Shown here piece after piece: positions 291 to 26,226 of a stretch of 64,000 nucleotides of DNA. The translations under genes and the position numbers were made by a program. Numbering within the stretch: the stretch's first letter is position 1; every line of letters begins with the position of its first letter. The DNA comes from Byssothecium circinans. Its lineage: Eukaryota; Ascomycota; Dothideomycetes; Pleosporales; Massarinaceae. Location of the stretch: positions 388,457 to 452,456 of the forward strand of contig ML976997.1 in NCBI GenBank assembly GCA_010015675.1. The letters run 5' to 3'. The notes beneath the pieces were generated by a model. It made no database searches and was not told the DNA's origin. It worked only from the letters and a program-made list of their open reading frames with translations.

Positions 291-3200
291 TTGGCTTCCC
301 TGTTACCTTCGGTCGGGCGCGTGACTGTCACGACATCAACGACATCTTCACTCCGCCCTTACCGCGCCTTCACCACCAACCGTCCCCGCGACTCACCACT
401 CAAAGACGTTTTCGATGCGCTAAAGAGGCTCTCTGTAGGGCACGAAAAGCCCGACCCCGAAAAGCCCCAGGCGTTTGAAAACGTCCTACACCGCCCCATT
501 GGCCCGCCGGACGAGGGCGCGCGACCGCGATACCATCTCTCAACACCCACAGCTGCGCCGACGCCGACTCCAACCCCGACCCCGAAAACCACCCCCAGGC
601 TTCTTCTACCGTCCATACACGACAGGACGAGGCCGAAGGAGGTTGACCTGCGCCGCGATATCACTATCGCTTCCGACGCGATGAGCTCTTCGATACATGT
701 CGTCACCGTCCCCACGGCGGACACACCAGGAACCACGCTCATCCTACAAACCCAGAAACAACACTACCTATTTGGCAGCTATGCGGAGGGTACGCAGCGC
801 GCCATGACACAGATGGGCACCCGTCTGGTCAAGGTGCAGGACTTCTTCATGACGGGGAGAATAGAATGCGCAAATACAGGTGGCTTGGTCGGCCTGTCCT
901 TGACGCTGGCTGACTCGGCCTCTACGTCGTATGAAAGCAATATGGAAGTATGGAGAAAGAAGAAAGGGAAAGGCACCAAGAACAACCCCGAGCCTCAGCT
1001 GCCAAAGATAGACGTCTATGGTCCACCAAATCTGAAGCACATGCTGGCCACGTGCCGCCGCTTTATCTTCAGAAAGGGCGTGCCCATGAGTGCGACCGAG
1101 TACAAACATGCGCCGCCTGAGAAAGATGCCGATGGCGACATACTACCGACATGGCAGGACAACAATATCCAAGTGTGGGCTCTACCCGTAACGCCTGCAC
1201 GAGAGGCGGATGAAAAGGAAGAAGAGGCATTGGTCAAACAGCAAGCACACTACGACAAGTTCTTAAACAGCTTTGAGGAACTACAAGCACCCGAGGACGA
1301 GACCGCGGCGGGGAGAGAAGCGCGGCATGATCGCATACGCTCGGCAGTCCTTCAGTTCATGTTCAATTCCAACTGGAGCTTTGACGCGCTGATCGAGCGC
1401 CACATATCAGAGGTTGAGGTGCCGGCTGCAATCTTCGTCCGCAACCCACACACGCATGGCATTGAACCTTATCGCGGACCTATGCCTGGCGGAGTGGCGC
1501 CACTTCCTGACATTAGAGTGCTCATACGAACACCTTGGCCCGGTGCGAGAGTCGCCAATTTACCTCCTACGAAGCCTGCCCGGGAGTCGCTATCATACAT
1601 AGTCCGCCCTCACAAGGCACGCGGTACATTCGACCCTAAGCGTGCAAAAGAGCTTGGTTTAACCCCAGGTCCATTGTTTGGGAAACTGAGTGATGGTCAC
1701 TCCGTCCAGAATGAGGCTGGCGAAACCATCACCCCTAACATGGTCATGGGCCCCGACAGGCCTGGCCAAGGGTTTGCTATTCTAGATGTTCCTTCTGTGG
1801 AATATTTGGAGTCGCTCGCTCAACGGGAGGAGCTACAGTCGGAAACGGTCATGCATGGTATCAATGCTTTCTTCTGGCTGCTTGGGCCTGGAGTTTCGGG
1901 CCATCCGATGTTCCGTCAAATCACGCAGAAGATGGATAAGGTGCAGCATATTGTGTCTTCTGTTGATACCTGCGTTAACGGCATCGCGCTCGAATCTGTT
2001 GCTGCGCAAACCGTACGACTTGGCAACATTGATCCTGCCCGATACAACATACCCTTCTCCGATCACGTTAGTCTACCACAAAACAGTTTGTATGGCCGAG
2101 AATCGACTGCGATGGGCGGCCTCCCGCAAAACACAATCGCAGCAGGTAGAGGCATGTCCTATGGTCTTATGCCCCGGTTCGAGAAGCAAAAAGATGTGAT
2201 ACCGTACGACACCAAAATTGCCCGTCACGTCTGCGAGGCCATGGATCCGGAGGTCCTCGTGAGTGCAAAGGACGCCCAGAAAGCAGTCCAGGACGATACA
2301 CAAGCTTTGACAGCGTGGCGAAAGCTACTCGCGCGACCCGACTCCGAAGTCATAACCCTTGGGACTGGTTCAGCTCTCCCATCGAAATACCGCAACGTCT
2401 CCGCCACTCTGCTGCGGGTGCCCGGCGTTGGAAACTACCTCTTCGACTGTGGCGAGAATACTCTGGGTCAATTGCAAAGAGTGTTTCCTCCCGAGGAGCT
2501 TGTGGACGTTATCAAGAACCTGCGTATGATCTGGATCAGCCATCTCCATGCCGATCATCATCTTGGAACGGCTTCGGTAATCAAAGCATGGTACAAGCTC
2601 AGACACAACGGCGTGCCGATAGAGGAGCGACCGCACATGCCGTTGATCGCCTCCAACACATCCACCTACGGACTCTCCGTTGTCTCACACGAGGGTATGG
2701 TCAATTGGCTATGGGAGTACTCGTCAATCGAGGACTTTGGGTACAGCCGCATACTTCCCTTTGCGGTGAGCCCTGAAAAGCAGTCAAACCCTGGAACGAA
2801 GCTCACTCTGACATACGGTAACCGACCATCTAACGGTGTCGACTATGAGCTCAGACCCCAAGACTACGAGGCCGTCTTCGGCCTGGCAGATATCCGCGCG
2901 TGCCCCGTGCGGCACTGTCACGGAGCCATGGCTGTCTCTCTAACCTTCCCCCCTTCTCCATCCGACCCCCCAGGCGTAAAACCCCTCAAAGTATCCTACT
3001 CGGGCGACTGCCGACCAAGCAGGGACTTTACAGTCATCGGCCGCGACACCACCGTTTTAATCCATGAAGCTACTTTCGACGACGAATTACATGGAGACGC
3101 GGTGGCGAAGAAACATTCTACTACCTCGGAAGCGCTCGGTATCGGCGCACAGATGGACGCTAAAGCAGTCATCCTTACACATTTCAGTCAACGCTACCAG

Positions 3201-3758
3201 AAGATTCCAGTCTTGGAGACTGTCAAGGATGGTGAGCAGGAAGACGATTTACCGGGGCCGGAAGCTATGGAGGATGTGCAGGAGGGAGAGGAGGAAGTGG
3301 AAGTGGAAGTGGAAATGGAGGGAGGAGATGATAGACCGGCTGATAACGTGGATGCGCATTCTTCGGCTAAGACTGTGAAACCTCCTTCCACCGCCACCGC
3401 TGCTTCGCAACCCGCATCCCGAACACCAGTTCGCTATGTCCATACCGGCGCTCCCACTCACGGCACCGCAAACAGCCACGAACAAGTCATCAAAGTGCGC
3501 TCCAAGGACATGAAGGTCGGCGTTGCGTTCGATTACATGCGTGTTAAGATCGGGGAGATTGCGCAGTTGGAGAAGTTCAATGCGGCGTTGAATAAGTTGT
3601 TGGCGAAGGATGAGGAGATGGGTGAGGAGGGGTTGGAAGGGGAAGGAATGGGAGAGGAGCAGGTGATCAATGGGAATGGGAAGAAGACTAGTGGGGATGA
3701 GGGAGGTGGTGCGAATGCGAATGCAAAGAAGAAGAAGAAGAGTAAGCGGAATAATTAG
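291..3758 (+). CDS. trz1: Long-form tRNase Z (tRNA 3'-end processing endonuclease)
   Basis: This enzyme is the endonuclease that removes 3' trailers from precursor tRNAs in nucleus and mitochondria. The 1155-residue intronless ORF has the long-form (ELAC2/Trz1) layout: a degenerate N-terminal metallo-beta-lactamase half (from about residue 131) and a catalytic C-terminal half. The zinc motif HLHADHH begins at H751; downstream come GTGSALPSKYRN before it and SYSGDCRPS, HEATFDDE and ILTHFSQRY after it. The conserved family start is M131 (position 681, MSSSIHVVTVPTADTPG). The 130 residues before it are Arg/Ser/Thr/Pro-rich with a PTPTPTPTPK stretch and an MASLLP... start that could be a mitochondrial leader, so two starts may give two locations. 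The C-terminus is acidic, then Lys-rich (KKKKKSKRNN). Function is confident; the start is not. Confidence 0.93.
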   Translation: MASLLPSVGRVTVTTSTTSSLRPYRAFTTNRPRDSPLKDVFDALKRLSVGHEKPDPEKPQAFENVLHRPIGPPDEGARPRYHLSTPTAAPTPTPTPTPKTTPRLLLPSIHDRTRPKEVDLRRDITIASDAMSSSIHVVTVPTADTPGTTLILQTQKQHYLFGSYAEGTQRAMTQMGTRLVKVQDFFMTGRIECANTGGLVGLSLTLADSASTSYESNMEVWRKKKGKGTKNNPEPQLPKIDVYGPPNLKHMLATCRRFIFRKGVPMSATEYKHAPPEKDADGDILPTWQDNNIQVWALPVTPAREADEKEEEALVKQQAHYDKFLNSFEELQAPEDETAAGREARHDRIRSAVLQFMFNSNWSFDALIERHISEVEVPAAIFVRNPHTHGIEPYRGPMPGGVAPLPDIRVLIRTPWPGARVANLPPTKPARESLSYIVRPHKARGTFDPKRAKELGLTPGPLFGKLSDGHSVQNEAGETITPNMVMGPDRPGQGFAILDVPSVEYLESLAQREELQSETVMHGINAFFWLLGPGVSGHPMFRQITQKMDKVQHIVSSVDTCVNGIALESVAAQTVRLGNIDPARYNIPFSDHVSLPQNSLYGRESTAMGGLPQNTIAAGRGMSYGLMPRFEKQKDVIPYDTKIARHVCEAMDPEVLVSAKDAQKAVQDDTQALTAWRKLLARPDSEVITLGTGSALPSKYRNVSATLLRVPGVGNYLFDCGENTLGQLQRVFPPEELVDVIKNLRMIWISHLHADHHLGTASVIKAWYKLRHNGVPIEERPHMPLIASNTSTYGLSVVSHEGMVNWLWEYSSIEDFGYSRILPFAVSPEKQSNPGTKLTLTYGNRPSNGVDYELRPQDYEAVFGLADIRACPVRHCHGAMAVSLTFPPSPSDPPGVKPLKVSYSGDCRPSRDFTVIGRDTTVLIHEATFDDELHGDAVAKKHSTTSEALGIGAQMDAKAVILTHFSQRYQKIPVLETVKDGEQEDDLPGPEAMEDVQEGEEEVEVEVEMEGGDDRPADNVDAHSSAKTVKPPSTATAASQPASRTPVRYVHTGAPTHGTANSHEQVIKVRSKDMKVGVAFDYMRVKIGEIAQLEKFNAALNKLLAKDEEMGEEGLEGEGMGEEQVINGNGKKTSGDEGGGANANAKKKKKSKRNN

Positions 3759-3761
3759 TGC

Positions 3762-3832
3762 GGCGATGGCGATGGCGATGGCGATGTTGAGGGATGGGGG
3801 AAGATCAGTTTGGGGGGGGGGGGGGGGGGGGG
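3762..3832 (+). repeat. GGCGAT hexamer run and a 21-base G tract after tRNase Z
   Basis: Just past the stop codon there are four GGCGAT units (about 3763-3786), then an uninterrupted run of 21 G at 3812-3832. It lies in the probable 3' UTR. Such a run may be length-variable and is error-prone in sequencing. Confidence 0.9.
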
Positions 3833-6800
3833 ATTGAGAGCGGAGGGGAGGGGAAGCAAAGGAGGGAGAATAGGGAGGGGAGTGCGGAGTAGGGAGAGTG
3901 TAATATACCTGCATGGCATAGCATTAAATGGAGTTTAAGACTTACTACTGAGGGGTAGATTTGGGTTTGGGTTTGGAGACGTGTAGCGTGTAGTCTGGGT
4001 CTGGTGCTGTAACCTAGGTGGAAATAAGGAAAACCTTTTGCATCTCACCATCATCATCATACATCATACCTTTCTCTAGCGAGTTGATGCCCACCATCAT
4101 CACCTTGGTTTCCACCGTACCGCGACCTCGGGTAATGACAGACAGCATCGTCGTGGAAAAGGAAAACTAAATTGACGCAGGGGAGGACTGGAGACATGTT
4201 CGCACTGATATCCTTCTTTTTTTTCTGGTCCTTTTTCTTTTTTTGATGCGATACCACGCATGGCGGAATCATGATAATTTTTTAAATTAACAACTCTTTC
4301 TTCTTATACAAGTTTGTGTACATACATATATATATGCATGCACCTTTTTTTGTACGGACAGTTCTGGAAATGCGGCCAGACTCGTCGTGTGAAAGTTATT
4401 TTTTGTTCGTAATTCGTATATGCATGGGTGGTATGGTTTACGTCTTATTTCTTAGTCCTTATTTTCTTTTTTTCCTTTTTTTCTGCGATTTCTTCCCGGT
4501 GCGGGAGCGGACAGACAGCGAGCGGCATAAGGTTGCTCTGCCAGTTTTTTTCATTCTGTTGGAGGGGGTTTCGTTTTTTTTCGTCGTGCTGTTTGCTGTA
4601 ATTTGTTGAGTCCTGGAGTTTTGCTGTGGCTGGACGCCGCAGAACGACATGAGATTTCTTTGGTTGTGTTTTTGAGCGACTGTTATAACTTATTAAGTCT
4701 CGAGCATTTATTTTGTGGCTGGGCACAGAAGCAGCACGACATGATGTGGCAGTGCCTTCTTTTTTGTCACGCTGGTATCATGTTTTCTCTTCGGCATGTG
4801 CGCAGGTGGGGTACATGAGTTACCTCTCGAGAGGCTTTTTGGATTTGGGATAGTGGATATTGGATGGTTGATAGCGGGGACGTAGGGGGTAGGGGAGTGG
4901 GAGATGATGATAGGTGGTGGTGGATAGCAGACGGCAAGCATCGAATTCATGTTCTGGTCATTTCGGCGTTCACGGAAAGCGTATGGGAGGAATCCAGGAG
5001 TTTGACAGGCTGCGGGACTGGGGGGGAGGTGACAAGTTTATTAATCTTTGTTACTGCTGGTTGGAGGCATGCGCGCTGTCTGCATCGTTTTACACTTTGG
5101 GGAAAGTAGGCAACAACACTGGGATCAAGCCGAGGACGGAGGACGGACGGGACGGAACACAACTGTGATCGTATTGTGATTTAGAGCGAGGAGGGTGCAG
5201 GGGCAGCGGACATAGCAACTGATGTAGGAAAGTTTTTTCTCCGGTAGGTATTTGGATTGAGGTAGCATTCCTCTTTATCAAGTGTGACTTTGGAGCGAAA
5301 GAGGCGCAAAAGATATTCCGCTGTGCGGTCTCGATTTTCGCAGGGACTGGATTTAGGGCGGGAGAAGGGGAGGAACATTCTTTTCTTCTGAATGTACCGT
5401 ACTTTTAGAGTGCGAGGTTACAGCCCATCACGGACATGCCTTCGGTTCAAAGGCATTTTTGAAGGGCGAGGAGGCGCAGCGGACATGTAGTGCTCCGCAA
5501 CGCAATTTTAGTGGATACTTGGATCGAGGTGAGGGTTGGAGGAGATATAACCATCTTTTATTAGGGTTTAAAGTGAGGAGGCACAGCGGCCACATGCCTG
5601 GATAATGTGTTTCTTTGTAGGCGAAACCAAGGTCTGAGAGTGGACGGAACATGCGCTTCCATAGGTAGAATTTTGGAAAACGAGGAGGTGCGGCGGACAT
5701 ATTTCCGGGAAATTGACCACTTTCGTATGCAAAAGCTGGGAGTTGAAAATTGTGAGGGATCGGAGTGGTGAGGACGTGGAAATGCGGATATGATTTCAAG
5801 GACGTGGGAGCGTTTCATCCATTTTGAGTACCTAGGTATGGAGTGTTCTTTTGAAAGATGGGGGTTGGTGGGAGAGACGGGGAGGATGCGGAAGCAAAGA
5901 CGCGTGCATCATTGAAAAACATTCACAGTTTTGGAGGTGTTACGGGAATGCTTTCGTCATACCTAGTGGAACCCATGGCTTTGGTGATGGAAAGGAATAT
6001 AGGGTGCTGGGCACTAGGAGAACCCTATGTCTGGCGAGTAAATATTTTGGAGAATAAAAGCCTTTTATCTCCCGCGCACTCATTATGCGGAACCTCGGCC
6101 ATTTTGTAGAGGAGAAGAGAGCCGGAGGAAACTTGAAATGCTTGTGGGGGATTTTTTGGTGGATAATAGGTCCAGAGGGGCGAAGGCCGAGACATGGAGA
6201 CCCAGTACATAGGTCTTTAATGCAAGAGGAAGGAATCTTCCATATGCTCGTCGTCTTCACGGTTTTTCTTTGGAAAGATAGAATGAGAGAAGAGGAAGAG
6301 GGGGACGTGAGTAAGGAGCGCGGCGGATTTTAGTGATGTAGAGAGCTGATATAACGTGTTAATGGAGCTGAGAATAGAGAATTTCTGGTGGCTGTGTGCC
6401 TAAGCGGAGGTTTCTTTATATGCCTTCGCCATGAACATTATTTTAGTGAGGAGGAGAGAACGGAAAGCCTTTTTATGCCGTGGTACATTTTGGCGTTGGA
6501 GGGCTAGAGTGAGGGTTGGGTCGTCGGATCTCTTGTTATACAGTTTTGGAAATTGGCGGACTGTCGCCGGGTATTGTTTTTAAACAAGATCATGAGTCAT
6601 CTACCTTAGCCAGAGCTAGGCCCCAAACATGAGGCCTCCGTTATGCGCATTTTTGAAAGGTATGGAAGAGGGAGGGATTTTTCTGATGGCTTTCGGCTCA
6701 GTTCGTTTTTAGATAAGGTGGTAAGTCGTGAGATGGTCCAGGGAAGGAGAAGAGGCACACATGATATTTGTGTTCACCAAATTTTGGTCAATAGAGGGGT

Positions 6801-7371
6801 GGAGTAAGTGGCAGGATATGACATAATGTCTGGACTAGTATGGGGAGGGGAGGTGCAGACGTTCTTCCCAGATGTGAAGCTGGCGGTACAATACTTTTTG
6901 ATGAGGAGGATAAGGTGGAGACATCGAGCTCGCTGGCATTGATTCTTTGCCTTTGTTCAACTTCTTCATGCGGAAGAAAGTAAGGGAGGAAGCCATTGTC
7001 TTCTAGAACTTTTTTTTTAGCGGATGAGTGCGGCGAGGGGTGAAACACATCGGACGTAATTACAGCTGAAAGTTTTCTGATGTTCAAATTTCAAGTGTCC
7101 TGGAGTGGCGTACGACATCAGCGGCAAACTTGTTGATTTCGGGAACCCGCGTCTTTTCCATATGTGTTTTCCTTTGCATTTTGTTGAGGTCGAATAAACA
7201 TAGCATCATTCCAGAATGTTTTTTTTATAATAAGGCAGTATGAATGAGAGGAGCTTGAGAAAGGATTTTGGTTGGGTTTCAAAAGTTCGGAAACAATCAC
7301 TAGTTTCCTTTGCTTTTTAGAAACGCACTTTGCGTTGCCCGCATGAAAGTGAACAGGTTGGTACATGCACG
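3833..7371. other. 3.5-kb non-coding stretch with decayed repeats
   Basis: No convincing gene is seen. ORFs here are short, lack recognisable domains and have low-complexity translations. The plus strand is G/T-rich at 3760-4000 and 4300-4900. From about 5160 to 5700 a degenerate motif recurs (separate entry). The first few hundred bases probably contain the tRNase Z 3' UTR. A long non-coding RNA or old duplicated DNA are possible; I cannot tell which. Confidence 0.5.
5186..5700 (+). repeat. Degenerate repeat with core GAGGAGGYGCRGCGGACAT
   Basis: Four related cores are visible at about 5186-5213, 5468-5486, 5575-5596 and 5682-5700. The last three are about 106 bp apart; the first lies 2-3 periods away, with a weaker match near 5295-5310. 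Flanking sequence between cores is only loosely conserved (for example ATTTT-rich segments followed by GGATA or GGAAA). It looks like an eroded tandem array. Confidence 0.5.
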
Positions 7372-7611
7372 TCATGCAACATCCCTAATTCTAAACCCCC
7401 AAACTCCACTCAAGTTTTCGTCACAGTAATTGCATGCACATATTACCACTATGCCTTTGAGAACCACAGATCGGCCTTTGAAACCTCCGCCCGCGGACTG
7501 GAAGCCTTTCGCGCAGGCACCCCCTGTTATGGCAGAGCCATTTCCAGCCTCTGCTGTTTCAGACCACGGGAGCTCGCTGCTCAGCTTGTTGTACACTTTT
7601 CTTGGCGTGGA

Positions 7612-7926
7612 TCACTCTGTACGTGCCGCCCCCGTTGAGTTGATCTGTAGCATGAGATTCTGCATGGCAATCAGCATGTCCGACTGCTCGCTATTGGGAT
7701 CACCCCGGTATTGCTCTCGGCGAATGATATTCCCAATTGATGAGATACTCTCAATCTCCTTAGCAGACATCTCGTCGGTTTTGAAGAGGAAGAATGAGCT
7801 GTTGAGCGGGAGCGTAGGGCCATGCTCGACAATCTGAGGCCAGATCAGGGTTAGGTCCCAGCGTGCTTTCAATGAGTACCCTGCACCGAGGCGTGTAATT
7901 TGCGCGGGCGACAAGCCATTAAACAC
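7612..7926 (-). CDS. Possible 3' exon of the kinase-ankyrin gene, or small separate ORF
   Basis: This ORF encodes about 104 residues (LSPAQITRLGAGYSLKARWD...). It lies 34 bp beyond the stop of the kinase-ankyrin gene, on the same strand, and its composition looks coding. A 36-nt intron from GT at 7979-7978 to AG at 7945-7944 would splice the ankyrin frame into it, reading ...VELSAAYRFLVFNGLSPAQ and avoiding the stop at 7960. That intron is shorter than the others in the window, so this is tentative. A further open stretch (7372-7596, minus) follows, with no family I recognise. Confidence 0.3.
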   Translation of the reverse strand: MFNGLSPAQITRLGAGYSLKARWDLTLIWPQIVEHGPTLPLNSSFFLFKTDEMSAKEIESISSIGNIIRREQYRGDPNSEQSDMLIAMQNLMLQINSTGAARTE

Positions 7927-7959
7927 TAAAAACCTGTAAGCTGCTCTGCGGAAGAAGCT

Positions 7960-10900
7960 TCAGGCGGAAGGGTCTGTACCTGAGAGTTCAACCTTCAATA
8001 TTTTAAACCCTTCCGGCTCATAGAGGAGTACGAAAAGCTCATCAACCTCAATCTTTGTGACAGATGCCATAATCTTCCTAGGCTGCACCCGATTTGTGGC
8101 ATAAAGCATGTGCAATATCAATAAGGAGCCTTCAAAGTGACGTTTGTCCGCCTCGTTGCGTTTCTCCTCGGGCACCTCCCAAAGTTCCATGTGTGGAGCC
8201 TGGTTCTTGAAGAGGCGGCTCGCAAGATCTATAAGGCTGTTGCCTTCATGGTCCAGTAGCGCGAGGTCCAGGCTGTCTCCTTCCTCGTCCAGGAGATAGC
8301 GTACTGCCTCCTCATTGCACGTTTTCACGGCAAGATGCAATGCGGTGCTGCCCTTGTATACGCCCTCAGAAATAACTAGGTTCAAGTACCCTGGGTTGTA
8401 CCTGCGCCTGACAATGCTCTGTAGCGGAGAGGTGGAGCGAGACGAGCCAGGCCGGTATTCCACCATGAACACTGCCGCGTGTAGTGCAAACATTTTCGAC
8501 CCCTCGAGGTGGATCACATCATAGTATACAGCGTCTGTGATGTTCATGTCTAACAAGGCGTCGATATGGCGAGAAGAATTGCTGTATGACTTGGATGACA
8601 TAATAAGTCGGCCTAGAATCGTGTCCCCATCGGTCGTTTTCGTCAAGTCGCATTTTCCCGTTTCATAGATCCAATGAGCAAGAACGTACTTTCCCGCAAC
8701 GAGCGCCCTCTCGAAATGGTCGTGGAAATTGGCATCGGACCGGCGGTAATGTCCAAGGTGGTCGAGAAATTCGGTGTCGTCGGGCAGGGCATATGTTGCG
8801 GCAAAAAAGGAATTCCACTGCTCCGAAGACACTTTGTCCGCTTGCGAATAGGACACGAGCGACTCGAATGCGACTTTGTCTTGAAGAACGCAAGCAATCC
8901 AAAGACAGCGTATCCACTGTGAAGGATCTGGCTGCAGCTTTCCGCTCTGCCAGCTCATCAAATAGTCTAAGATGTACGGTTGACTCCGTTCCAGAGCAGG
9001 TACGATGACGGATTCGCCCTCGCCATTGATATCTAGCGGGTTTGCTCCATGGCGGATAAGAACTTCGAACGTTTTTTGAAAGGCCTTCTCATAATCCTTT
9101 CCATGGATAAGGATCCGGTTGAAAGTGCTGGAATTCCCGTCAGTGACAACCCAGCCAAGAATTGCAAATGGATCCTTCAAGGCATCACTGCCAAACTTGC
9201 GGTAGACACCATTCAAATGTTCAGCGTAGTCTTTTGAGGCCTCGAGTAGGATTTCGAGGAGCCAGTACTGGCAGGTGACGGAGGCCTGCCACACTGGAAA
9301 GACATGGACGCTGTTCGACCAGTTATCGTCGTACTTTATATCTCGTCCCTGTACATCAAATGGGTCCGCCCCAATATCCATGAGCGCCTGAGTGGCTGTT
9401 TCGTTACCTGCGGCAACAGCCCAGGTCAAGGGAGTTCCTTCTACGGTTCCATATGTTGAATCAATGCACTGACTATATTGCCACCCTTTACGCGAGCGGG
9501 CTTCTCGGTCAGCCCCTGCCTGGATCAGTGCATCTGTGATCTTTGGAATGTCTTCTTCATCAAACGAGCCCAGGAAATGCAACGGTGTAACTCCTTCGTC
9601 ATTCGCCAAGGTGGGATCGGCGCCCTTGTCAAGCAGAAGAAGAGCAATCTCAGCGTGGCCAGATCGACATGCCTTTAAAAGAACAGTCTCATTTCCCATG
9701 TAGAGTTTGTTTATGTCCAGCTCTTGGGCTTTTGAGGCGATGATTCGGCGTACAAGTTCGTATCGACCCCCGGTCGCGGCAAGCTGGAAAATGTCTCCGA
9801 GACTACTCAGTGAATCTTCAATGGCCATGAAGAAAGAATCATCATCCACCAAATCCGAGTCGTAGTAGTTGCGGGGCGCTACAAGTCCAATCCCAACGTA
9901 GCGACAACGAAGGTGTGAAACTGCCCGTTGATATTCTCCCATATCGAGAAATGATAATCGTCTTCGTGCCGTGGAATTGCCCTTGCAGATGGCCGCATAA
10001 AGCCACTGCTTCTCTTCTTTTGTAGAAACGGGAAGTGACCTATCAAACGCAGCATGAAGCCATCCAACCATCCCGCCAGCTACGGTGTGCCCTAGTCGAG
10101 CTGCAAGAAGCACTGCTTGAAGTATCGAGTTTAGCTCCTCCTCTTTGCTTTTCTCCATCTTCCTCAGTCGGAATCGAAGAATAGAGCACTGCCATGCAGC
10201 TTCCGCTCGACGTAGCTTGTCTTCTCGTCCATCGTGCGCAACGACCGTCATTTCAGTCACTATTTGATTCAGGACTGATGTCGGTAGGAGTCTCAGAGTT
10301 CCAAGTGATCTATCTGCCTGTGCTAAACGTCAGATTGAGCGCATTTTATCTTTAATCTATCTCATACCTCAACAACAGCACCAGCATTACGTATTGGATA
10401 CATCTCCTCTGGCGTTGGGAGCTCGTGTTTTTTCCTGCTACTGTTAGCTTGTGAGCCAGCTAATAAACCTTGACTCCCACCAATTCTTTAGTATTCTGGC
10501 AATTCTATGCGCGGATTCGATTTGCGGGATTTCATCAAGCCCCGGGAGGTCTCGTTGTTGGGAGATGGCATAAATGCTCCTGTCAATATACTCGGTCATC
10601 TTTGCGTAATGCCAGACGCGCGCCACATCTTCCTCTGTTGGTGTTTGATTCGCTTGATTTTCAGGTAAGCGGCTTGCACTAACACCTAAAATAGCTCTCT
10701 TACCTGGATTTTGTAATATCTCTTGTTCCTGCGAGTTCAGGTCTCTCGCTTTGATGAACTCTCCCATTCTTGCATGGTCAGAATAGTTAAGCGGGTTTAG
10801 TATGTCCCTATTGAGAACCCAGCTAAGGCATATTCGTATATTTCGGTGGAGTACGCCACTCCTTCGTTTGACTGCAGGTTCGAATAGGTGTGACGAGATC

Positions 10901-12078
10901 GTCTCCCCTACTGCTCGCGCAATCTGGGCAATGGTCTTGAGTTGAGAATCATTGTCGGTATCATCGTCGACTTCTCCATTTTCCCCATGACCATTCGTCA
11001 TCCCATCTAACTGTTGCTTGGCAGCCGGCCCGTAGCGTTTGTTCTCTTCGGCCTTGAGAGCAGATCTTAGTATAGACTTTAACGTGTAGTAGGCACATCC
11101 TGCCGCTTTCCGATACCTTCCTTCGATATCGTCTTCAGACTGCTCAGATTGCTCATGCTGTTCAGGTGGTCCGGACTGTCCGGGGTGCTCAGACAGCTTA
11201 TTAGATCCACCATCCCCAAACATCGCCATCATATATCCTCTGCTGAGCATGTGTGCCACGAGAAGGGCCAGAGCGAATGTATCGGCCGCGATGAGTTGCT
11301 CGCCGTCAAGAGCTTTCTTACACTCCGGAGCCTGCCAGATTCCACTGCTGAATGGAAGACGGATTGGCTCTTTGACATCCGTTTTGAGTAATGACGAGCC
11401 GAAATCTGAGATCTTGGCAACAAACTTGAGTTCTGGGTCTTTAAAAATCAGGACGTTCGCCGGCTTGATGTCGCCATGTATAATGCCAACTTCGTGGAGT
11501 GCGGATACACCGGCGCAGACGTCGATGGCAAGTCCAAAGGTTTTGTGAGTGCTCATTTTGTCGATTGTGAAGCCTTCGGATTCCATCATCGCTTGGAGAT
11601 TTGTGTGAGCGACCTCCATGACAAAAGCGGGCATGACCTGGCCTCTTACTGATCGCCAACAGACTCCTAGGACGGTGACAATATTTTCATGGTCTTGAAT
11701 ATCTGGGTGTCGCAGTATCTGCAATTCCATCGCCATGGAGCTCCATAGCTTTTGGTTTCGCTTGTCGCGTAGCTCGCCCGTTATTTTTGGGCATTTGACG
11801 GCGACAACTTCTGGGAGAGCTTTGCCGGGTACCTCCGAATAGCTTGGCGGTGAGCGTGTTTCTGTAAGGGACCTGGAAGCAATGCTGTATACTTCGAAAT
11901 AGGCACCTTGATTGATTGGGGGTGGCAGGTCGAAATTCTGGTCGCTAATGAGGACTCCGATGAGTAAAAGGCCTGCCGTTACTGTCTGATGAGAGCAAAT
12001 GAATATGGACAGCAGTGACAAGAGGTCATGGTCACGCTGATGAAAGCCGACATTTGTTGCGGCGTCTTGAGTTGCCAT
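7960..12078 (-). CDS. Protein kinase-ankyrin repeat fusion (RIPK4/ANKK1-like architecture)
   Basis: This is a likely three-exon gene: 12078-10481, 10434-10368 and 10317-7960, giving 1340 residues. The two introns (46 and 50 nt) have a GCTAAC and a CTGAC branch motif and restore frame exactly. Start M (MATQDAATNVGF) is preferred to an upstream in-frame ATG at 12264, which would lie in the shared promoter. Residues about 50-330 form a kinase domain with K95 (VAVK), E118, HGDIKPANVL (D203, N208), DFG at 225-227 and APE at 250-252, so it appears catalytic; the HRD arginine is glycine. After a charged linker the last 785 residues carry degenerate ankyrin repeats, for example GNETVLLKACRSGHAEIALL, GTPLTWAVAAGNETATQAL and GSTALHLAVKTCNEEAVRYL. 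No signal peptide or clear membrane span. It is divergent to the HeLo-pseudokinase gene, suggesting joint regulation. An unspliced reading would give two proteins instead. Confidence 0.75.
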
Positions 12079-12411
12079 GATGGCAGACTGCAGATGCACG
12101 ACGTTTGGGCTGTTGATGATCGACTCATAAACACTTTTGCGCAAGGTGAAAGTCTGGATCGTTCCCCTTTGGCGTGGCGCCGGGACAGGGGCTATTATGC
12201 AGTCAGTTGATTGGGTGGCCACACAGCCATACCGCCACAAGAGGGCTGTGCAGACGCATAACAACGTGTCACTCGAAGCGCAGCATTACCAGCCTACAGC
12301 TCGCTCCTTACTCCTCACTCCTCACCCCTCACCCTCACAGCTCACCCACCACAGCCCACCCACCACAGCCCACCCACCACAGCCCACCCACTGTTCACAG
12401 CGCATAGCGCC
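12079..12411. promoter_or_regulatory. Shared divergent promoter of the kinase-ankyrin and HeLo genes
   Basis: 333 bp separate the preferred start codons of two divergently transcribed genes. It must hold both promoters. The side near the HeLo start is C/A-rich and contains a 14-bp direct repeat array (separate entry). I see no clear TATA box. Confidence 0.6.
12343..12392 (+). repeat. 14-bp tandem repeat CACCCACCACAGCC, three units plus partial
   Basis: Three identical units at 12343-12356, 12357-12370 and 12371-12384 are followed by a partial CACCCACT. The array ends about 20 bp before the HeLo gene start, so it is probably in the 5' UTR or core promoter. Confidence 0.9.
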
Positions 12412-14157
12412 ATGGCTCCTGTGGACTCGTTGAGCGTCGGCAGTACCGCAGTTGGTGGAGCAAGCTTTCTCGTTCAAGTCTTCCAGGGCTGCGTAAAAAG
12501 CTTCGAATTGTGGAGAAAAGGAGAAGAACTCGCCGATGAAGCTGAAGTGTTTCAAGTAAGACTTGAAATGCAAGCTGCAAAGTTGAAGACTTGGGGCGTT
12601 GAATGGGGGCTGGACCGCGGCCCTGATTCTATGCATCTCAAGGACCGGCGTTTTCAGGAGCATGGCGATGTTGCAGTGAAATACGTCGTTCTCATCTACC
12701 ATTTCTTGGATGAGCTCGGCAAGCTGGAACAGGACTTCCCTGCAATTTCTTCGGCTAGTAACACGTCGATATCCACCGCCTCGTCCATCACGAAACTGCT
12801 CGACATGGCCGACCCGACCTCGGTGGAGCGAAAGGACCTCGAGGCAAAGCTAAAGAGCATCCAGGATGACGCTGGGCTGAAGGACAAAATGAAGTGGGCA
12901 CTTCATGACGGCGGCCCACTGAAAGCTCTTGACCAGCTGAAGAATTTAGTCGATGAACTGCTCGACTTTTTCAAGCCTCCAAAAGTTGATCCTGCGGCGA
13001 AATTGGCATTAAACAGTCTTTTGGCGACGCTGAGTCTAGCAAAGCTGCAAACATTGAGTTCACAATCGGATGAGAACTCGGAACTGCGGGGATTGGCCCT
13101 TCTTAAATCGGCAATTATAGAGATGGATGCCCGAAAGACCGTTCTTGGAGGTGAGGATGTAAAGGAGAAGGATCGGTTCCTTGCAGTGACTGGAGCAAGA
13201 GATGAAAAGTCTGGTCGAAGCTATGGCGTCTTTACCAAAAATGGCATGCATGACGTGCTGGTAGAGTGGAAGCTAGTAGATCCTGTGCAATGTCCCCCGA
13301 ACGATTCGAGAGCAATGTACAAAATGATGCTGAAACACCGGATCGAGAACTTGGCCAGACTTTTGAAGGCTGAATACAAGCCTGTCGAGCTGCGTACACT
13401 GTCATGCATTGGCGTCGTCACAAAGCATCTTGTAGATGAAAAGCTGGAGCACGGCCTTGTGTTCAATGTCCCCGGAACAACCCACCAATGTTTATCGCAA
13501 ATCCTTGAAGGAACCGGAGATGGTCTTGACGCAGGAGATTGGTATCGCATTGCTAGGAGTATCTCCCGAGCTTTGTTGTACATGCATCTCGCTGGCTGGC
13601 TTCACAAGGGCATCCGAAGCGACAACATACTCTTTTTTGCCGAGAACAATAGCAGCTTTTCGTACGACAAACCTTTTATCGTCGGATTCGAATACAGTCG
13701 GGAGGCGCTTGCTCTCGCCCAAACAGAAGGCGTCACAGATGACTTCGAATTTAATCTGTATCGCCATCCAGACGTGCAAGGCCTGCCAGCCGCGGCACAA
13801 TCAGCAACAACACAGGCAACATCATCCTCCAGTGCGAGCAGAATACCGTTCGACTATACTCATGATCAATACAGCCTAGGCATTCTCCTTCTAGAGCTTG
13901 GCTTGAGGGAAAGCATCAAGAGTATACAACAGAGGGCCTCTCAAATCCCCGGATATGCAAGCCACTCTGCTGTGGAGTTTCGAGATCGCATTGTTGATTG
14001 TGAAGTACCCAAACTGGCTTCAAAGATGGGCAAGGGTTATCGGGATGCGACGAAGCTCTGTCTCACTGGAGGCCTAGTCCCGACACAGTCCAGAAGCATC
14101 CAGGAACAGTTTTATTTAAAGGTCGTTAGAGTGCTAGATGATTACAGAGTACCCTAA
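12412..14157 (+). CDS. HeLo-domain pseudokinase (MLKL-like architecture)
   Basis: This is an intronless 581-residue protein. Residues about 10-230 match the HeLo (prion-inhibition-and-propagation) domain of HET-S-type cell-death proteins: an N-terminal hydrophobic helix (VGGASFLVQVFQGCVKSFEL), then RLEMQAAKLKTWG, then DKMKWALHDGGPLKALDQLK, which corresponds to the KWALY...L..LV segment of the family. Residues about 285-575 are kinase-like but lack catalytic motifs: HRD is HKG at 398-400 (N405 kept) and DFG is GFE at 425-427. In HET-S the HeLo domain forms membrane-damaging oligomers; in MLKL a four-helix bundle is controlled by a GFE pseudokinase. A membrane-active, signal-gated cell-death executor is therefore inferred. 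It is divergent to the kinase-ankyrin gene, a plausible upstream partner. Domain assignment is strong; function is not demonstrated. Confidence 0.85.
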   Translation: MAPVDSLSVGSTAVGGASFLVQVFQGCVKSFELWRKGEELADEAEVFQVRLEMQAAKLKTWGVEWGLDRGPDSMHLKDRRFQEHGDVAVKYVVLIYHFLDELGKLEQDFPAISSASNTSISTASSITKLLDMADPTSVERKDLEAKLKSIQDDAGLKDKMKWALHDGGPLKALDQLKNLVDELLDFFKPPKVDPAAKLALNSLLATLSLAKLQTLSSQSDENSELRGLALLKSAIIEMDARKTVLGGEDVKEKDRFLAVTGARDEKSGRSYGVFTKNGMHDVLVEWKLVDPVQCPPNDSRAMYKMMLKHRIENLARLLKAEYKPVELRTLSCIGVVTKHLVDEKLEHGLVFNVPGTTHQCLSQILEGTGDGLDAGDWYRIARSISRALLYMHLAGWLHKGIRSDNILFFAENNSSFSYDKPFIVGFEYSREALALAQTEGVTDDFEFNLYRHPDVQGLPAAAQSATTQATSSSSASRIPFDYTHDQYSLGILLLELGLRESIKSIQQRASQIPGYASHSAVEFRDRIVDCEVPKLASKMGKGYRDATKLCLTGGLVPTQSRSIQEQFYLKVVRVLDDYRVP

Positions 14158-14197
14158 ACCTTTCTCTTGCTGCAGTCAAGAGTCAAACGCTTGTAGA

Positions 14198-14617
14198 TTA
14201 ATTTACGGGATCGAAGACTCGGCCGTGGAAATTTTCACTATTAAGCACTGAGGTAACTAGGCAGAGATAGGCTTCAACAGTGTCGCGGGTGAAAAATGGC
14301 GTTGCCGCCATTACGATCAAATTTCAGAGATAGCTGGTCAATCAAAGAATCCTTATCATCCGTAACACAGTTCTCCACTGACCCATTGCGTCTCCGGTCA
14401 AAGTAATATGGGCACCAGTGGTCGCATCATACCTCTTCTCCAACAAGATTACAAACACCGTCGCAAGGTCATAGTACTTGTGGGTGACGTTATCTTCGTC
14501 TTCATGCGCCTATTTGGCAAGCATTAGTACCAGGCGCCCTATGGTCTTTCGTTCTTGTGCGTTTTGCCTAGTATCCTCCCCAACTTGAACCATCAGAGCT
14601 ACAGCACAAATCGCCAT
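14198..14617 (-). pseudogene. Decayed gene fragment of unknown family
   Basis: The minus strand reads as a coding relic: ATG at 14617, MAICAVALMVQVGEDTRQNA..., an in-frame TAG after VLMLAK, then HEDEDNVTHKYYDLATVFVI and TGAHITLTGDAMGQWRTVLR, a frameshift to KDSLIDQLSLKFDRNGGNAI, and another shift to RDTVEAYLCLVTSVLNSENF ending at a stop at 14198. The continuous sense in three successive frames argues for a real former gene with one nonsense change and two small indels. I do not recognise the family. It lies tail-to-tail with the HeLo gene. Confidence 0.45.
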
Positions 14618-14639
14618 CCTTAGGATAAGGGATAGGGAT

Positions 14640-15180
14640 AGCTAAAGGATTCTTATCTATATTAAAAGGGGAAGCTATGGTACATAAGGGTGTAGATAAA
14701 GAAGGAAGATAGGTAAGAGAAATAGTAAGGCTTAAATTTATATAGTACGACTTTAACTAAGCGAGTAGATAAAAAGTATAGTAAGCATATAAAAAGCACA
14801 GGCCTAAAGAATTTAACCCGTGTAAAGCTAGGTAGTAGTAATAACCGCTATAAACTTGGCCCTTATGGCCCTCCATCCAACTCGCGATGGCCGCAACTAC
14901 AACCTAATAGAGGCTGGCGGTAAGGAATTGGCAGAATTGTTAGGTTCTGAAATTCACTACGCTTCGCTCCATGAATAATAATTCATTCTTTCCATCCTTC
15001 AACCCTCGACTGTCCATCTCCAAGAAACACTCCGCTTCGTCTCTTGGCCACCGCTAGTAGAAAATAGACACACCATCAGAACTATAGATAATAATCATGT
15101 GCAGCTGTGCTTGGACGCCGACGTGAAGTTTGACCCCTCTCGCCAATCCGGCAAAATTATGTCGACGATGCACCAATCAA
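14640..15180. other. AT-rich decayed DNA before the foldback element
   Basis: From 14640 to about 14830 the sequence is rich in TA, with long stretches lacking CA and TG contrast, as expected of RIP-mutated repeats. A dispersed repeat copy (14798-14904) follows. No gene is seen. Confidence 0.4.
14798..14904 (+). repeat. Dispersed repeat, copy A (pair with 25437-25541)
   Basis: About 105 bp match copy B at 25437-25541, including GTAATAACCGCTA and AAACTTGGCCCT, then ATGGCCCTCCATCCA and CTCGCGATGGCCGCAACT. Differences are mostly C-to-T or G-to-A type in copy A (TATAAACTTGG for TACAAACTTGG; CCCTTATGG for CCCTCATGG), as expected for RIP. The parent element is unknown. Confidence 0.75.
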
Positions 15181-15189
15181 CATCATACC

Positions 15190-15891
15190 CGTGTCCGTGC
15201 GCGTAATGCGCGGATTCGCGTAATGCACCGCTTTTTACTAGGAAAATCAAAGAAAATAAGCAACTTTAAAGCTATATAACTCTTTAACTACCTTTTCTTT
15301 TTAAAAGCTTCCTTAACTAAAGTTATAGAGAAAGACTATCTCTATAACTCTAGAATTTTAGTTTTCTAATAATAATTAATTTTAAGAAAAAGTATAAAAG
15401 TACTAAAACTTAAGTCTTTAAAATTTAAAAATAATATTTTTTTAGGAGTAAAGTATACTATTTAGAATATATTTTATATTAGGTTCTTTCTAATAAAACT
15501 GCTAACTAGAAAGTTATATTATCTTTTTATTTTTTTTAAATAAGAAAATTAGAAAAGATAATTTATCTTCTTAAGTAGTTCTTTATAGAAAAAAGTCCTA
15601 ATATAAAATATACTCTAAATAGTATACTTTACTCCTAAAAAAATATTATTTTTAAGTTTTAAAGACTTAAGTTTTAGTACTTTTATACTTTTTTCTTAAA
15701 ATTAATTATTATTAGAAAACTAAAATTCTAGAGTTATAGAGATAGTCTTTCTCTATAACTTTAGTTAAGGAAGCTTTTAAAAAGAAAAGGTAGTTAAAGA
15801 GTTATATAGCTTTAAAGTTGCTTATTTTCTTTGATTTTCCTAGTAAAAAGCGGTGCATTACGCGAATCCGCGCATTACGCGCACGGACACG
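15190..15891. mobile_element. 702-bp foldback / MITE-like element with 294-bp inverted arms
   Basis: Left arm 15190-15483 and right arm 15597-15891 are near-perfect reverse complements, separated by an AT-rich 113-bp centre. The outer 40 bp are GC-richer and begin CGTGTCCGTGCGCG; the rest is A/T-rich. There is no coding capacity. TA dinucleotides lie 1-2 bases outside both arms (15186-15187 and 15893-15894), compatible with Tc1/mariner-type insertion but not proof. Arm differences include a C/T transition in the AAAAYTTAAAAATAAT segment. A transcript through it would fold into one long hairpin. It sits at the 3' side of a broken SDR gene. Confidence 0.9.
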
Positions 15892-15894
15892 TTA

Positions 15895-16291
15895 CGGTTC
15901 GAAGGCTGCATCGGCGAAAGAGCCTGACTCATGTACAACACATCCAACCTCGGAGGCCCTCCGGCAAACGGCGATTCCTGCTCTTGCTGAATAATCTTCT
16001 GGGAAACATTGTCCACCTCACTTATTAACGCCAAATCCGAAGCCTGGATGAACCGCCAATCTGAACCAGGACTCGTTTCGCGACCGTATTTGAGAAGAGA
16101 GCCTCTGCGCGTGAAGCATTGCGTCCGACTATGTATATGCGAAGTTTGGATCCGTGCTTTGTGAACGTCCTTGCAAGCGCTTTAGCGACGTAGTTTCCAA
16201 CGCCCGACGTAGCGCCGGTCAAAGCGACAACGAGAGGAGAGCCTTTGGGAAGTTCGGCGATGCCGGCGCGGATGGTTGAGACGTCAGGCAT
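15895..16291 (-). pseudogene. Short-chain dehydrogenase/reductase, truncated and frameshifted
   Basis: The minus-strand ATG at 16291 opens MPDVSTIRAGIAELPKGSPL, then VVALTGATSGVGNYVAKALA with the Rossmann TGxxxGxG motif and IYIVGRNASRAEALFSNT. Near 16085 the frame shifts; the family-like reading resumes as SPGSDWRFIQASDLALISEV, then RLDVLYMSQALSPMQPSN. It is then cut by the foldback element at 15891, and no convincing C-terminal part is found beyond it. The catalytic YxxxK region is missing. This resembles a fungal SDR group with the same MPxVSTIRA start. It is almost certainly non-functional. Confidence 0.8.
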
Positions 16292-24891: not shown

Positions 24892-26226
24892 AGGATTACG
24901 TTACACCAACGGCCAGCGCGAGATGGCTTAGCTGTTCATTCTACGACTTTGTTCAACTCCAAATAATGTCAAATTCATTGCAATCATATATAATATCCCC
25001 GCAAGGATCGTTTCCATTTCCAGGAACGCCATCTTCGTGAAGCCCGTCATCATACTTATCCGGTCATAAATGTAAGCGGGATGTTAGTCTCACGGCTTCA
25101 ACTCGTTTCATGGAAGCCCTCATCGCCGCAGAGAACCGAAGCGATCGCAATGTCCCGTCTGTCGATAGACTGATTGTTCGGACCAAGGCTACGGATATTC
25201 CTCCCCTTTTAATGAAGAAAGGGCTAGCGACACAGCCAAGGAAGAGCTCTGCTGCTTCGACACGCAGGAACATATCATGCTGGGAGATTGTGGAAGGCGA
25301 TATGATCGGAGGACTGTACTAGGATTCACTATGTTGATAGGGCTGCATGGCATGAACCACTGCAGAGCCAGGGAAGGAATAGACTCAGTGCATGGGTAGG
25401 ATGTATTCGAAGATGCAAAAGCAACGCTGACACAAAAGCACATGCCTAGAGGATTCATCCCGTGTGAAGCAAGATATTAGTAATAACCGCTACAAACTTG
25501 GCCCTCATGGCCCTCCATCCACTCGCGATGGCCGCAACTCCAACTCCAGCAACGCTGACATTGAACGATTCATGACTTGTAGGTTTATGTACACACAGCA
25601 GGACAGACTGACATTTGGAGATCAATTTGTTCGATAACCCCGAAATATCACGTGAGATGAGGGGTTCCAGGAATGGTTCCAAGGTTGCTGAGAGAAAAGG
25701 CGCGCCCTCGCTGCCCAGCCTTCCTTTCCCAAGTCCTGGAGGCCTCGCTTCCATTCGACTAGTCATTTGCCCACCTTTCTTTTCTTTCCTCGCGCCTTTC
25801 TGTCACCACACCCGTCCTTTGGCCGAGTCCTTCGTTGATGAAGACGTACCCTGAAGCCCCTTGCTTATTTCTCAGCCTTGGAAGCCATCATGCACGTGCA
25901 AGATTTGTCAGACATCGTCTGTCGAATGGGACTCGCGCTGCCCCGCCTCTGCTTAAGCCAGCTGTATCGGCCGTTCCCTGGTCTTTCCTTTTATTTTTCA
26001 CCCCAACCTCCGTCCTGAGGGCATTGTTTACTCTCAGTTCGCACGAAAAATATCATCTCCTCACAACTTATGAAACAACCCTCAACAACCGAAAGAGCTG
26101 TTCGCCCCTTACCTGGCGAGCGACGCTTATTCGTACGTATCCCATGCGGTTGGGATATCACGAAGGGTACGGCAATAGTTAAAAGGTATCCATCGTATCT
26201 CCACCATCCGGGCTGGAATCACGATC
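24892..26226. other. Intergenic region with one repeat copy
   Basis: A 70-codon ORF at 25110-25322 (plus; MEALIAAENRSDRNVPSVDR..., ending in WEIVEGDMIGGLY) has a coding look but no recognised family; it may be a small gene or a fragment. Repeat copy B lies at 25437-25541. The final few hundred bases are the HET gene's promoter and leader. Confidence 0.4.
25437..25541 (+). repeat. Dispersed repeat, copy B
   Basis: It matches 14798-14904 (see that entry). This copy retains more C and CA/CG dinucleotides and looks less mutated. Confidence 0.75.

What the first reader, a model, noticed from the sequence alone, without database searches (positions are those of the whole stretch)
7960..14157. Divergent kinase-ankyrin / HeLo-pseudokinase pair: a candidate fungal necroptosis-like module
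Seen: two genes start 334 bp apart in opposite directions. One encodes a kinase with intact K/D/DFG residues fused to ankyrin repeats. The other encodes a HeLo cell-death domain fused to a pseudokinase. Known: animal necroptosis uses an upstream RIP kinase and the executor MLKL (four-helix bundle plus pseudokinase); RIPK4 and ANKK1 are kinase-ankyrin proteins; HeLo-type domains kill fungal cells by membrane damage, and the related HeLo-like domains have been linked to the MLKL bundle. Inference: the pair is a sensor-kinase/executor system for allorecognition or defence. I know of HeLo proteins paired with NLRs, but not of this pair as a described system.
Basis: partly seen in the sequence, partly recalled or inferred. 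Interest (0 to 1): 0.88.

Follow-up and report, generated by a model that had tools for sequence, protein, structure and literature searches.

The report
Fungal kinase–ankyrin and HeLo-pseudokinase gene pair
A fungus carries, back to back, a gene for an active kinase with ankyrin repeats and a gene for a probable cell-killing protein fused to a dead kinase; the same two genes sit together in distantly related fungi, which suggests a fungal counterpart of the animal necroptosis switch.

Summary
In Byssothecium circinans (Pleosporales) two genes start 334 bp apart in opposite directions. KANK (minus strand, 12078–7612, five exons, 1421 aa) is an intact protein kinase plus ankyrin repeats. HPK (plus strand, 12412–14157, 581 aa) is a HeLo domain plus pseudokinase. 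HPK lacks both catalytic aspartates: HRD reads HKG and DFG reads GFE. MLKL has the same GFE (with HGK), and the loss is near-invariant in 73 HPK rows.

The pair is conserved: relatives of both genes sit on contigs of identical length in Pyrenophora and carry consecutive locus tags in two Fusarium species and in Trichoglossum, three fungal classes in all. A second divergent pair in the same genome joins a GFE pseudokinase to an active kinase.

Against: Bipolaris and Metarhizium KANKs had no HPK row named from those genera. By sequence HPK's pseudokinase is no closer to MLKL than to IRAK4 or RAF, so shared descent is unproven.

Best reading: KANK phosphorylates HPK's pseudokinase and frees HeLo. 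Adjacency and intact or dead residues are shown; phosphorylation and killing are inferred. HeLo–pseudokinase architecture is in print; seven literature searches showed me no kinase–ankyrin partner.

The parts
7612..12078 (-). KANK gene: N-terminal active protein kinase plus C-terminal ankyrin repeats, 1421 aa; exons 12078-10704, 10652-10481, 10434-10368, 10317-7980, 7925-7612
   Evidence: splice model identical to database protein P0074 over its full length
10807..11928 (-). protein kinase domain of KANK (about residues 51-424; stretches 242-253, 288-314 and 353-378 poorly modelled)
11794..11796 (-). KANK beta-3 lysine K95 (VAVK)
   Evidence: lysine in 24 of 24 close rows P0074-P0097
11398..11406 (-). 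KANK DFG motif (residues 225-227)
   Evidence: DFG in 23 of 24 close rows; P0094 has a gap there
8278..9783 (-). ankyrin-repeat region of KANK (outer limits of the best-scoring Ank_2 and Ank stretches)
   Evidence: Pfam Ank_2 3.9e-21, Ank 1.8e-18
12079..12411 (.). 333-bp shared 5' region between the two start codons; holds a 14-bp tandem repeat, 4 copies, 12336-12391
12412..14157 (+). HPK gene: HeLo domain plus pseudokinase, 581 aa, no intron
12445..13020 (+). HeLo domain of HPK (residues 12-203)
   Evidence: Pfam PF14479 5.3e-20; HET-s crystal structure 2wvo by family profile 2.3e-20
13078..13134 (+). long helix between HeLo domain and pseudokinase (residues 223-241), in the position of the MLKL brace
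   Evidence: secondary structure of the AlphaFold2 model; the functional analogy is inference
13138..14154 (+). pseudokinase domain of HPK (residues 243-581)
13603..13626 (+). dead catalytic loop HKGIRSDN (residues 398-405) in place of HRDxKxxN
   Evidence: HK followed by a residue other than D in 73 of 73 rows, the window's own included
13684..13692 (+). GFE in place of DFG (residues 425-427)
   Evidence: exact GFE in 66 of 73 rows; D at position 425 in 0 of 73, one of them with a gap there
13723..13725 (+). activation-loop threonine T438, candidate phosphosite
   Evidence: T in 65 of 73 and in 7 of 7 of alignment A4, including both paralogues of this genome; a role is inference

Best explanation
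The two genes form a dedicated two-protein cell-death module. KANK is the sensor and switch: its ankyrin array binds a ligand or a non-self partner and so controls an active N-terminal kinase. HPK is the executor: its pseudokinase holds the HeLo bundle in check. Activated KANK phosphorylates the HPK activation loop (best candidates T438 and S429, just after GFE); the pseudokinase changes shape, HPK oligomerises through its HeLo domain, and the N-terminal helix permeabilises the plasma membrane, probably in defence or allorecognition. Shown: the gene structures, intact catalytic residues in KANK, loss of both catalytic aspartates in HPK, the HeLo match and the kinase folds, and adjacency in several species. 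Inferred: direct phosphorylation, release of HeLo, killing, and the biological trigger. It works like RIPK3-MLKL on this reading; descent from the same pathway is not claimed.
For: Adjacency: 5 of 24 close KANK rows (P0074-P0097) lie on a contig of exactly the length that carries an HPK row, one of them the window itself. Three have consecutive locus tags: Fusarium sp. DS 682 IL306_005559/005560, F. nematophilum ACJ41O_009262/009263, Trichoglossum hirsutum GP486_000617/000618. Hosts are Dothideomycetes, Sordariomycetes and Geoglossomycetes. Division of labour: beta-3 lysine and catalytic-loop aspartate are present in 24 of 24 close KANK rows, DFG in 23 of 24 with one gap, while HPK has no aspartate at either site in 73 rows (one gap at the DFG site). 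MLKL also has GFE for DFG and HGK in the catalytic loop, keeps lysine K230, and is phosphorylated by RIPK3 in its activation loop (PMC5104457, passages); HPK keeps a lysine at the beta-3 position in 67 of 73. HeLo matches HET-s structures, and the HET-S HeLo domain is reported to kill and to permeabilise liposomes (PMC12881547, passages). Recurrence: of the 3 HPK-like loci that P0001 found in this genome, 2 are divergent neighbours of an active kinase gene: this one, and C14, where a GFE pseudokinase (P0196) starts about 420 bp from P0197, which has HRDLKPGN and DFG. A RHIM/PP-like core is absent from 5 of 5 KANKs and 4 of 5 HPKs tested (the one GxQxG match, in P0011, lies inside its pseudokinase), which leaves a route other than that amyloid motif.
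Against: KANK occurs in Bipolaris (3 rows) and Metarhizium (1 row, 19 members) without any HPK row named from those genera (many rows there carry no name), and the large Fusarium KANK clusters (31 and 42 members, P0082, P0084) have no HPK row on a contig of their representative's length. Missing annotation, hidden cluster members and true loss cannot be told apart. HPK is wider than KANK: 68 of 73 HPK rows share no contig length with a KANK row (many lie on short contigs), so many may use other partners. KANK-linked HPKs do not form one clade. In Pyrenophora only a shared contig length of 1.41 Mb is shown, not the distance. The third HPK-like locus of this genome (C27) has a metallophosphoesterase frame as its nearest recognised upstream neighbour. 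No direct test of phosphorylation, interaction, death or strain variation was possible.
Confidence: 0.5

Rival explanations
1. A functional pair with the opposite or a different logic: KANK restrains HPK, or HPK's pseudokinase is a decoy that foreign effectors or non-self factors act on, with KANK as co-guard. The pair would be a poison-and-restraint or guard-and-decoy system, not a phospho-relay that switches killing on.
For: Adjacency and dead/active division fit this equally. Metarhizium KANK groups with the Pleosporales KANKs and not with Fusarium (95/99), which hints at horizontal transfer or ancient duplication.
Against: No evidence favours inhibition over activation. Near-invariant S429 and T438 in the loop (66 and 65 of 73) look like a conserved switch, though conservation is not proof of phosphorylation.
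Confidence: 0.2
2. The neighbours share a promoter region and history only; each works in its own pathway.
For: Gene pairs can persist by shared promoters; HPK is far more widespread than KANK (73 rows, 5 of them with a KANK on a contig of the same length).
Against: Consecutive tags in three genomes from two further classes, and a second, differently built active-kinase/GFE-pseudokinase divergent pair in the same genome. With 136 kinase match rows in 48.4 Mb (a lower bound for kinases, though some genes give two rows), a kinase within 500 bp upstream of a given gene is expected in roughly 0.14% of cases (my arithmetic, uniform placement), against 2 of 3 seen.
Confidence: 0.18
3. HPK is not a killer: its HeLo domain only assembles a signalling complex at a membrane, and the pseudokinase is a scaffold for KANK, as KSR is for RAF/MEK.
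For: KSR1 and RAF are among the nearest solved relatives of the pseudokinase. The highest 19-residue hydropathy in HPK, at its N-terminal helix, is only 1.32.
Against: The HET-S HeLo domain is reported to kill and to permeabilise liposomes (review PMC12881547, passages), and HeLo and HeLo-like domains are described as pore-forming (PMC4835503, passages).
Confidence: 0.12

Closest known systems
RIPK3-MLKL necroptosis switch (animals)
   Same: Active kinase upstream of a helix-bundle-pseudokinase executor; executor lost the HRD and DFG aspartates and reads GFE, as MLKL does (PMC5104457, passages)
   Different: KANK carries ankyrin repeats and no RHIM-like core by a simple pattern; the HPK pseudokinase profile scores IRAK4, B-RAF and KSR1 slightly above MLKL; HPK catalytic loop reads HKG, MLKL HGK
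Fungal HeLo/HELL proteins with kinase or pseudokinase domains (mentioned in PMC12881547, passages)
   Same: The HPK layout itself
   Different: The passages that I saw describe no kinase-ankyrin partner gene for them and give no motif analysis
HET-S/NWD2 and HELLP/PNT1 gene clusters (HeLo-type executor with NLR sensor)
   Same: Neighbouring sensor and HeLo-type executor genes (PMC12881547)
   Different: Sensor here is a kinase-ankyrin protein without a nucleotide-binding domain in Pfam; no RHIM/PP-like core found in KANK
RIPK4 / ANKK1 (kinase-ankyrin proteins of vertebrates; recalled)
   Same: Kinase followed by ankyrin repeats
   Different: No RIPK among the 60 shown of 449 matches of the KANK kinase; shared descent of the layout not shown
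Plant MLKL proteins (mentioned in PMC12881547)
   Same: Described there as MLKL homologues
   Different: Not compared here in sequence

Membership tests
HeLo domain proteins (PF14479) | Sequence match above the curated cut-off | tested here: met
   72.5 bits against 23.2; HET-s 2wvo 2.3e-20 by family profile
HeLo domain proteins (PF14479) | Membrane-active N-terminal helix | tested here: inconclusive
   Helix 7-35 predicted, but residues 1-14 under pLDDT 50; peak 19-residue hydropathy 1.32
HeLo domain proteins (PF14479) | Causes cell death / permeabilises membranes | not testable with these tools
   needs expression or liposome assay
MLKL-type executor | N-terminal helix bundle, linker helix, C-terminal kinase fold | tested here: met
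   HeLo match, helices and kinase fold of the model; the N-terminal half was not itself compared with MLKL
MLKL-type executor | Catalytically dead: DFG to GFE, catalytic-loop aspartate lost, beta-3 lysine kept | tested here: met
   GFE 66 of 73, no HRD aspartate in 73 of 73, lysine at position 287 in 67 of 73; MLKL motifs from PMC5104457
MLKL-type executor | Kinase domain closer to MLKL than to other kinases (shared descent) | tested here: inconclusive
   Profile E-values: IRAK4 5.3e-8, B-RAF 4.7e-7, KSR1 1.4e-6, MLKL 2.3e-6 (60 of 227 rows seen); no tree with animal MLKL was made
MLKL-type executor | Activated by phosphorylation of the activation loop by a partner kinase | not testable with these tools
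   only conservation of S429 and T438 seen
RIP kinases | RIPK-type kinase domain | tested here: inconclusive
   no RIPK in the 60 shown of 449 matches; 389 matches not seen
RIP kinases | RHIM amyloid core (RIPK1/RIPK3) | tested here: not met
   simple pattern [IV]Q[IVLC]G or GxQxG absent from 5 of 5 KANKs
Fungal NLR sensor | NACHT or NB-ARC domain | tested here: not met
   above cut-off Pfam finds only kinase and ankyrin families in the two KANK pieces scanned
Two-gene HeLo executor cluster | Sensor and executor genes adjacent across species | tested here: met
   consecutive locus tags in 3 species and a shared contig length in a fourth, besides the window; not seen for Bipolaris and Metarhizium
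Two-gene HeLo executor cluster | Allelic or strain polymorphism as in het loci | not tested
   no strain data available

The most novel reading that the evidence does not exclude
Fungi possess a RIPK3-MLKL-like phospho-relay: kinase-class sensors encoded back to back with GFE-pseudokinase executors form a general module class, met twice in this one genome with differently built kinases (kinase-ankyrin with HeLo-pseudokinase at C21; at C14 a kinase followed by a long frame without Pfam domain, facing a GFE pseudokinase whose N-terminal part is of unknown fold). Either the kinase-to-dead-kinase killing switch predates the fungus-animal split, or the same GFE solution was reached twice.
Probability: 0.35. 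Interest if true: 0.92.

Novelty: new variant of a known kind. Interest (0 to 1): 0.74.

Why it matters
Fungal necroptosis-like death is described mainly through NLRs and amyloid motifs (PMC12881547, passages); a phosphorylation route from an active kinase to a dead kinase fused to the killer domain would close a main gap between the fungal and animal pathways. That review asks for wider exploration of fungal HeLo proteins and of how far necroptosis is conserved (section 17). The pair gives a direct, testable object: two genes, named catalytic residues and named loop residues.

Tried and rejected
A first last-exon choice (7979–7934) gave an early stop and was dropped.

MLKL as nearest relative of the HPK pseudokinase: not upheld by profile. 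With single queries MLKL was not among the 60 shown of 120 rows for P0196 nor in the 13 rows for P0066. The full-model fold search lists JAK, MerTK, RAF, CDK and other kinases, and no MLKL appears in the 50 rows of either; absence there excludes nothing.

An amyloid link: no RHIM/PP-like core by a simple pattern in 9 of 10 proteins; one GxQxG hit inside the P0011 pseudokinase. Other amyloid families were not tested.

DUF7580 proteins as a background: none of the 15 matches in this genome lies within 5 kb of a listed kinase row, except C3, where both matches are in one frame (compared by eye, not by script). The kinase list is a lower bound (122 of 341 candidates scored) and does not list KANK itself, so this control is weak. 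A motif pattern run on 12 of those 15 loci matched only L034, a canonical active site, and found no GFE type: the GFE motif may not be general to DUF7580, or the pattern was too strict.

Literature: searches showed no paper that describes a kinase–ankyrin / HeLo-pseudokinase pair; I saw listings and, for eight papers, passages. One search concerned MLKL's GFE, vic4. The library is open-licence PMC only; the 2016 PNAS paper (PubMed 26903619) was not held. Seen: PMC12881547 passages and section 17; PMC10197012, PMC9815663, PMC5485727, PMC5104457, PMC7849911, PMC11476962, PMC4835503 passages only; the rest search listings.
Full report
What is there. The window is from Byssothecium circinans, Pleosporales (name of P0074; taxonomy). 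On the minus strand a gene from 12078 to 7612 encodes KANK, 1421 aa: kinase, then ankyrin repeats. It has five exons; my splice model is identical to the database protein P0074. On the plus strand 12412–14157 encodes HPK, 581 aa without intron. The start codons are 334 bp apart. Pfam gives HeLo 5.3e-20 for HPK with only sub-threshold kinase scores, and Pkinase 8.9e-20 and Ank_2 3.9e-21 for the KANK pieces.

Active kinase, dead kinase. In the 24 close KANK rows P0074–P0097 the beta-3 lysine and the H-x-D-x-K-P-x-N loop are present in 24 of 24; DFG and APE in 23 of 24, P0094 having a gap there. In HPK the catalytic loop reads HKGIRSDN and DFG reads GFE. Of 73 rows (the window's own included), 73 have HK followed by a residue other than D, 66 have exact GFE, and none has an aspartate at either site (one row, P0045, has a gap at the DFG site). 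At the beta-3 position 67 of 73 keep the lysine. The 73 include Lentinula, Laccaria and Mycena (basidiomycetes, recalled). A paper on MLKL states that its DFG is replaced by GFE and its catalytic loop by HGK (PMC5104457, passages). So the same DFG replacement, and loss of the same catalytic aspartate, occur in both proteins.

Conserved adjacency. The protein database gives contig lengths and, for some rows, locus tags. Comparing 73 HPK rows with the 24 close KANK rows, five KANK rows share an exact contig length with an HPK row: the window (745651), Pyrenophora seminiperda (1414643), Fusarium sp. DS 682 (23915), F. nematophilum (5812052) and Trichoglossum hirsutum (35424). In the last three the tags are consecutive. 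These are Dothideomycetes, Sordariomycetes and Geoglossomycetes. Orientation in the other species is not known. A profile search with 12 KANKs (137 hits among 7995 scored candidates, 120 listed) listed no further close KANK, so the KANK family looks compact within that limit.

Results against. Bipolaris (three KANK rows) and Metarhizium (one row, 19 members) have no HPK row named from those genera, where many rows carry no name; the biggest Fusarium KANK clusters (P0082, 31 members; P0084, 42 members) have no HPK row on a contig of the representative's length. Only cluster representatives are visible, so this is neither proof of absence nor of presence. Sixty-eight of 73 HPK rows share no contig length with a KANK row, many being on short contigs. 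In the HPK tree (52 of 73 rows) the KANK-linked rows fall in three places: a Pleosporales clade, a Fusarium clade, and Trichoglossum with Neoarthrinium and two other Fusarium rows. So the pairing is older than those HPK lineages or arose more than once. In the KANK tree (15 of the 24 close rows plus 3 distant ones) Metarhizium joins the Pleosporales (95/99) and not Fusarium, although both are Hypocreales (for Metarhizium recalled), and Byssothecium joins Bipolaris (86/87, below the strong-support mark) and not Pyrenophora, although the latter two share a family. Transfer, old duplication or long-lived alleles could cause this; long branches make it tentative.

The rest of the genome. The window's own assembly (48.4 Mb) holds three HPK-like places by P0001, six HeLo places and at least 136 kinase match rows (122 of 341 candidates scored, KANK itself not listed). 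I looked at the surroundings of all three HPK-like places. At C14 a pseudokinase with HKS and GFE (P0196) starts about 420 bp from the first in-frame ATG of a divergent active kinase, P0197, with HRDLKPGN and DFG. The N-terminal part of P0196 matches no HeLo family in Pfam; its fold was not predicted (scanned without its first exon). At C27 a HeLo–pseudokinase with HKG and GFD (P0198) has a calcineurin-like phosphoesterase frame as its nearest recognised upstream neighbour, and a kinase row 3.9 kb away on its other side. So 2 of 3 have an active kinase as divergent neighbour. By my arithmetic a kinase within 500 bp upstream of a given gene is expected in about 0.14% of cases under uniform placement.

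Mechanism. The division into one active and one dead kinase, the HeLo fusion on the dead one, the linker helix, and near-invariant S429 and T438 just behind GFE (66 and 65 of 73; T438 in 7 of 7 of A4) fit a phospho-relay in which KANK unlocks HPK. The ankyrin array would be the sensor. I put about 0.8 on the genes working together, 0.5 on activation by phosphorylation as stated, and less on any named trigger. No strain data were available for the allorecognition idea.

Known and new. [quoted passage not shown] So the HPK layout and the cluster principle are known. Not seen in searches: a kinase–ankyrin sensor next to a HeLo–pseudokinase, or the family-wide GFE. By descent HPK is not shown to be an MLKL: the pseudokinase profile scores IRAK4, B-RAF and KSR1 slightly above MLKL. 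I therefore call it a new variant of a known kind.

Noticed in passing
L024 (G000 C14) 4228-5818 minus and 6240-7328 plus: Second divergent pair in the same genome: GFE pseudokinase (P0196) with an N-terminal part of unknown fold, about 420 bp from an active kinase (P0197) that is followed by a long frame without Pfam domain.
   Followed up: partly
L022 (G000 C27) 6062-8032 minus: HeLo-pseudokinase paralogue (HKG, GFD) whose nearest recognised upstream frame encodes a calcineurin-like phosphoesterase; a kinase row lies 3.9 kb away on the other side.
   Followed up: partly
L034 (G000 C3, 174256-176151 plus): DUF7580 and an active kinase domain in one 668-aa frame, a tandem layout reminiscent of JAK kinases.
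   Followed up: no
window 26179-28399 plus: HET-domain (heterokaryon incompatibility) frame about 12 kb from the pair; Pfam PF06985 at 3.7e-23, followed by a 446-aa frame without Pfam match.
   Followed up: no
L026 (G000 C56) 2942-7371 minus: A second kinase frame and ankyrin frame side by side, probably one gene, on a contig without a HeLo match: a kinase-ankyrin protein without a HeLo neighbour.
   Followed up: partly
window 12336-12391: Four copies of a 14-bp repeat (97% matches) inside the shared 5' region of the two genes.
   Followed up: no
window 14001-16000: AT-rich stretch (GC 0.378) directly behind HPK, possibly decayed repeat DNA.
   Followed up: no
P0079 (Metarhizium KANK): KANK of Metarhizium groups with Dothideomycetes and not with Fusarium (95/99), a hint of horizontal transfer or old duplication.
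   Followed up: partly
G000 C21: The held contig is 735033 bases long, while the protein database gives 745651 for the contig of both window proteins, so the two records differ in length.
   Followed up: no
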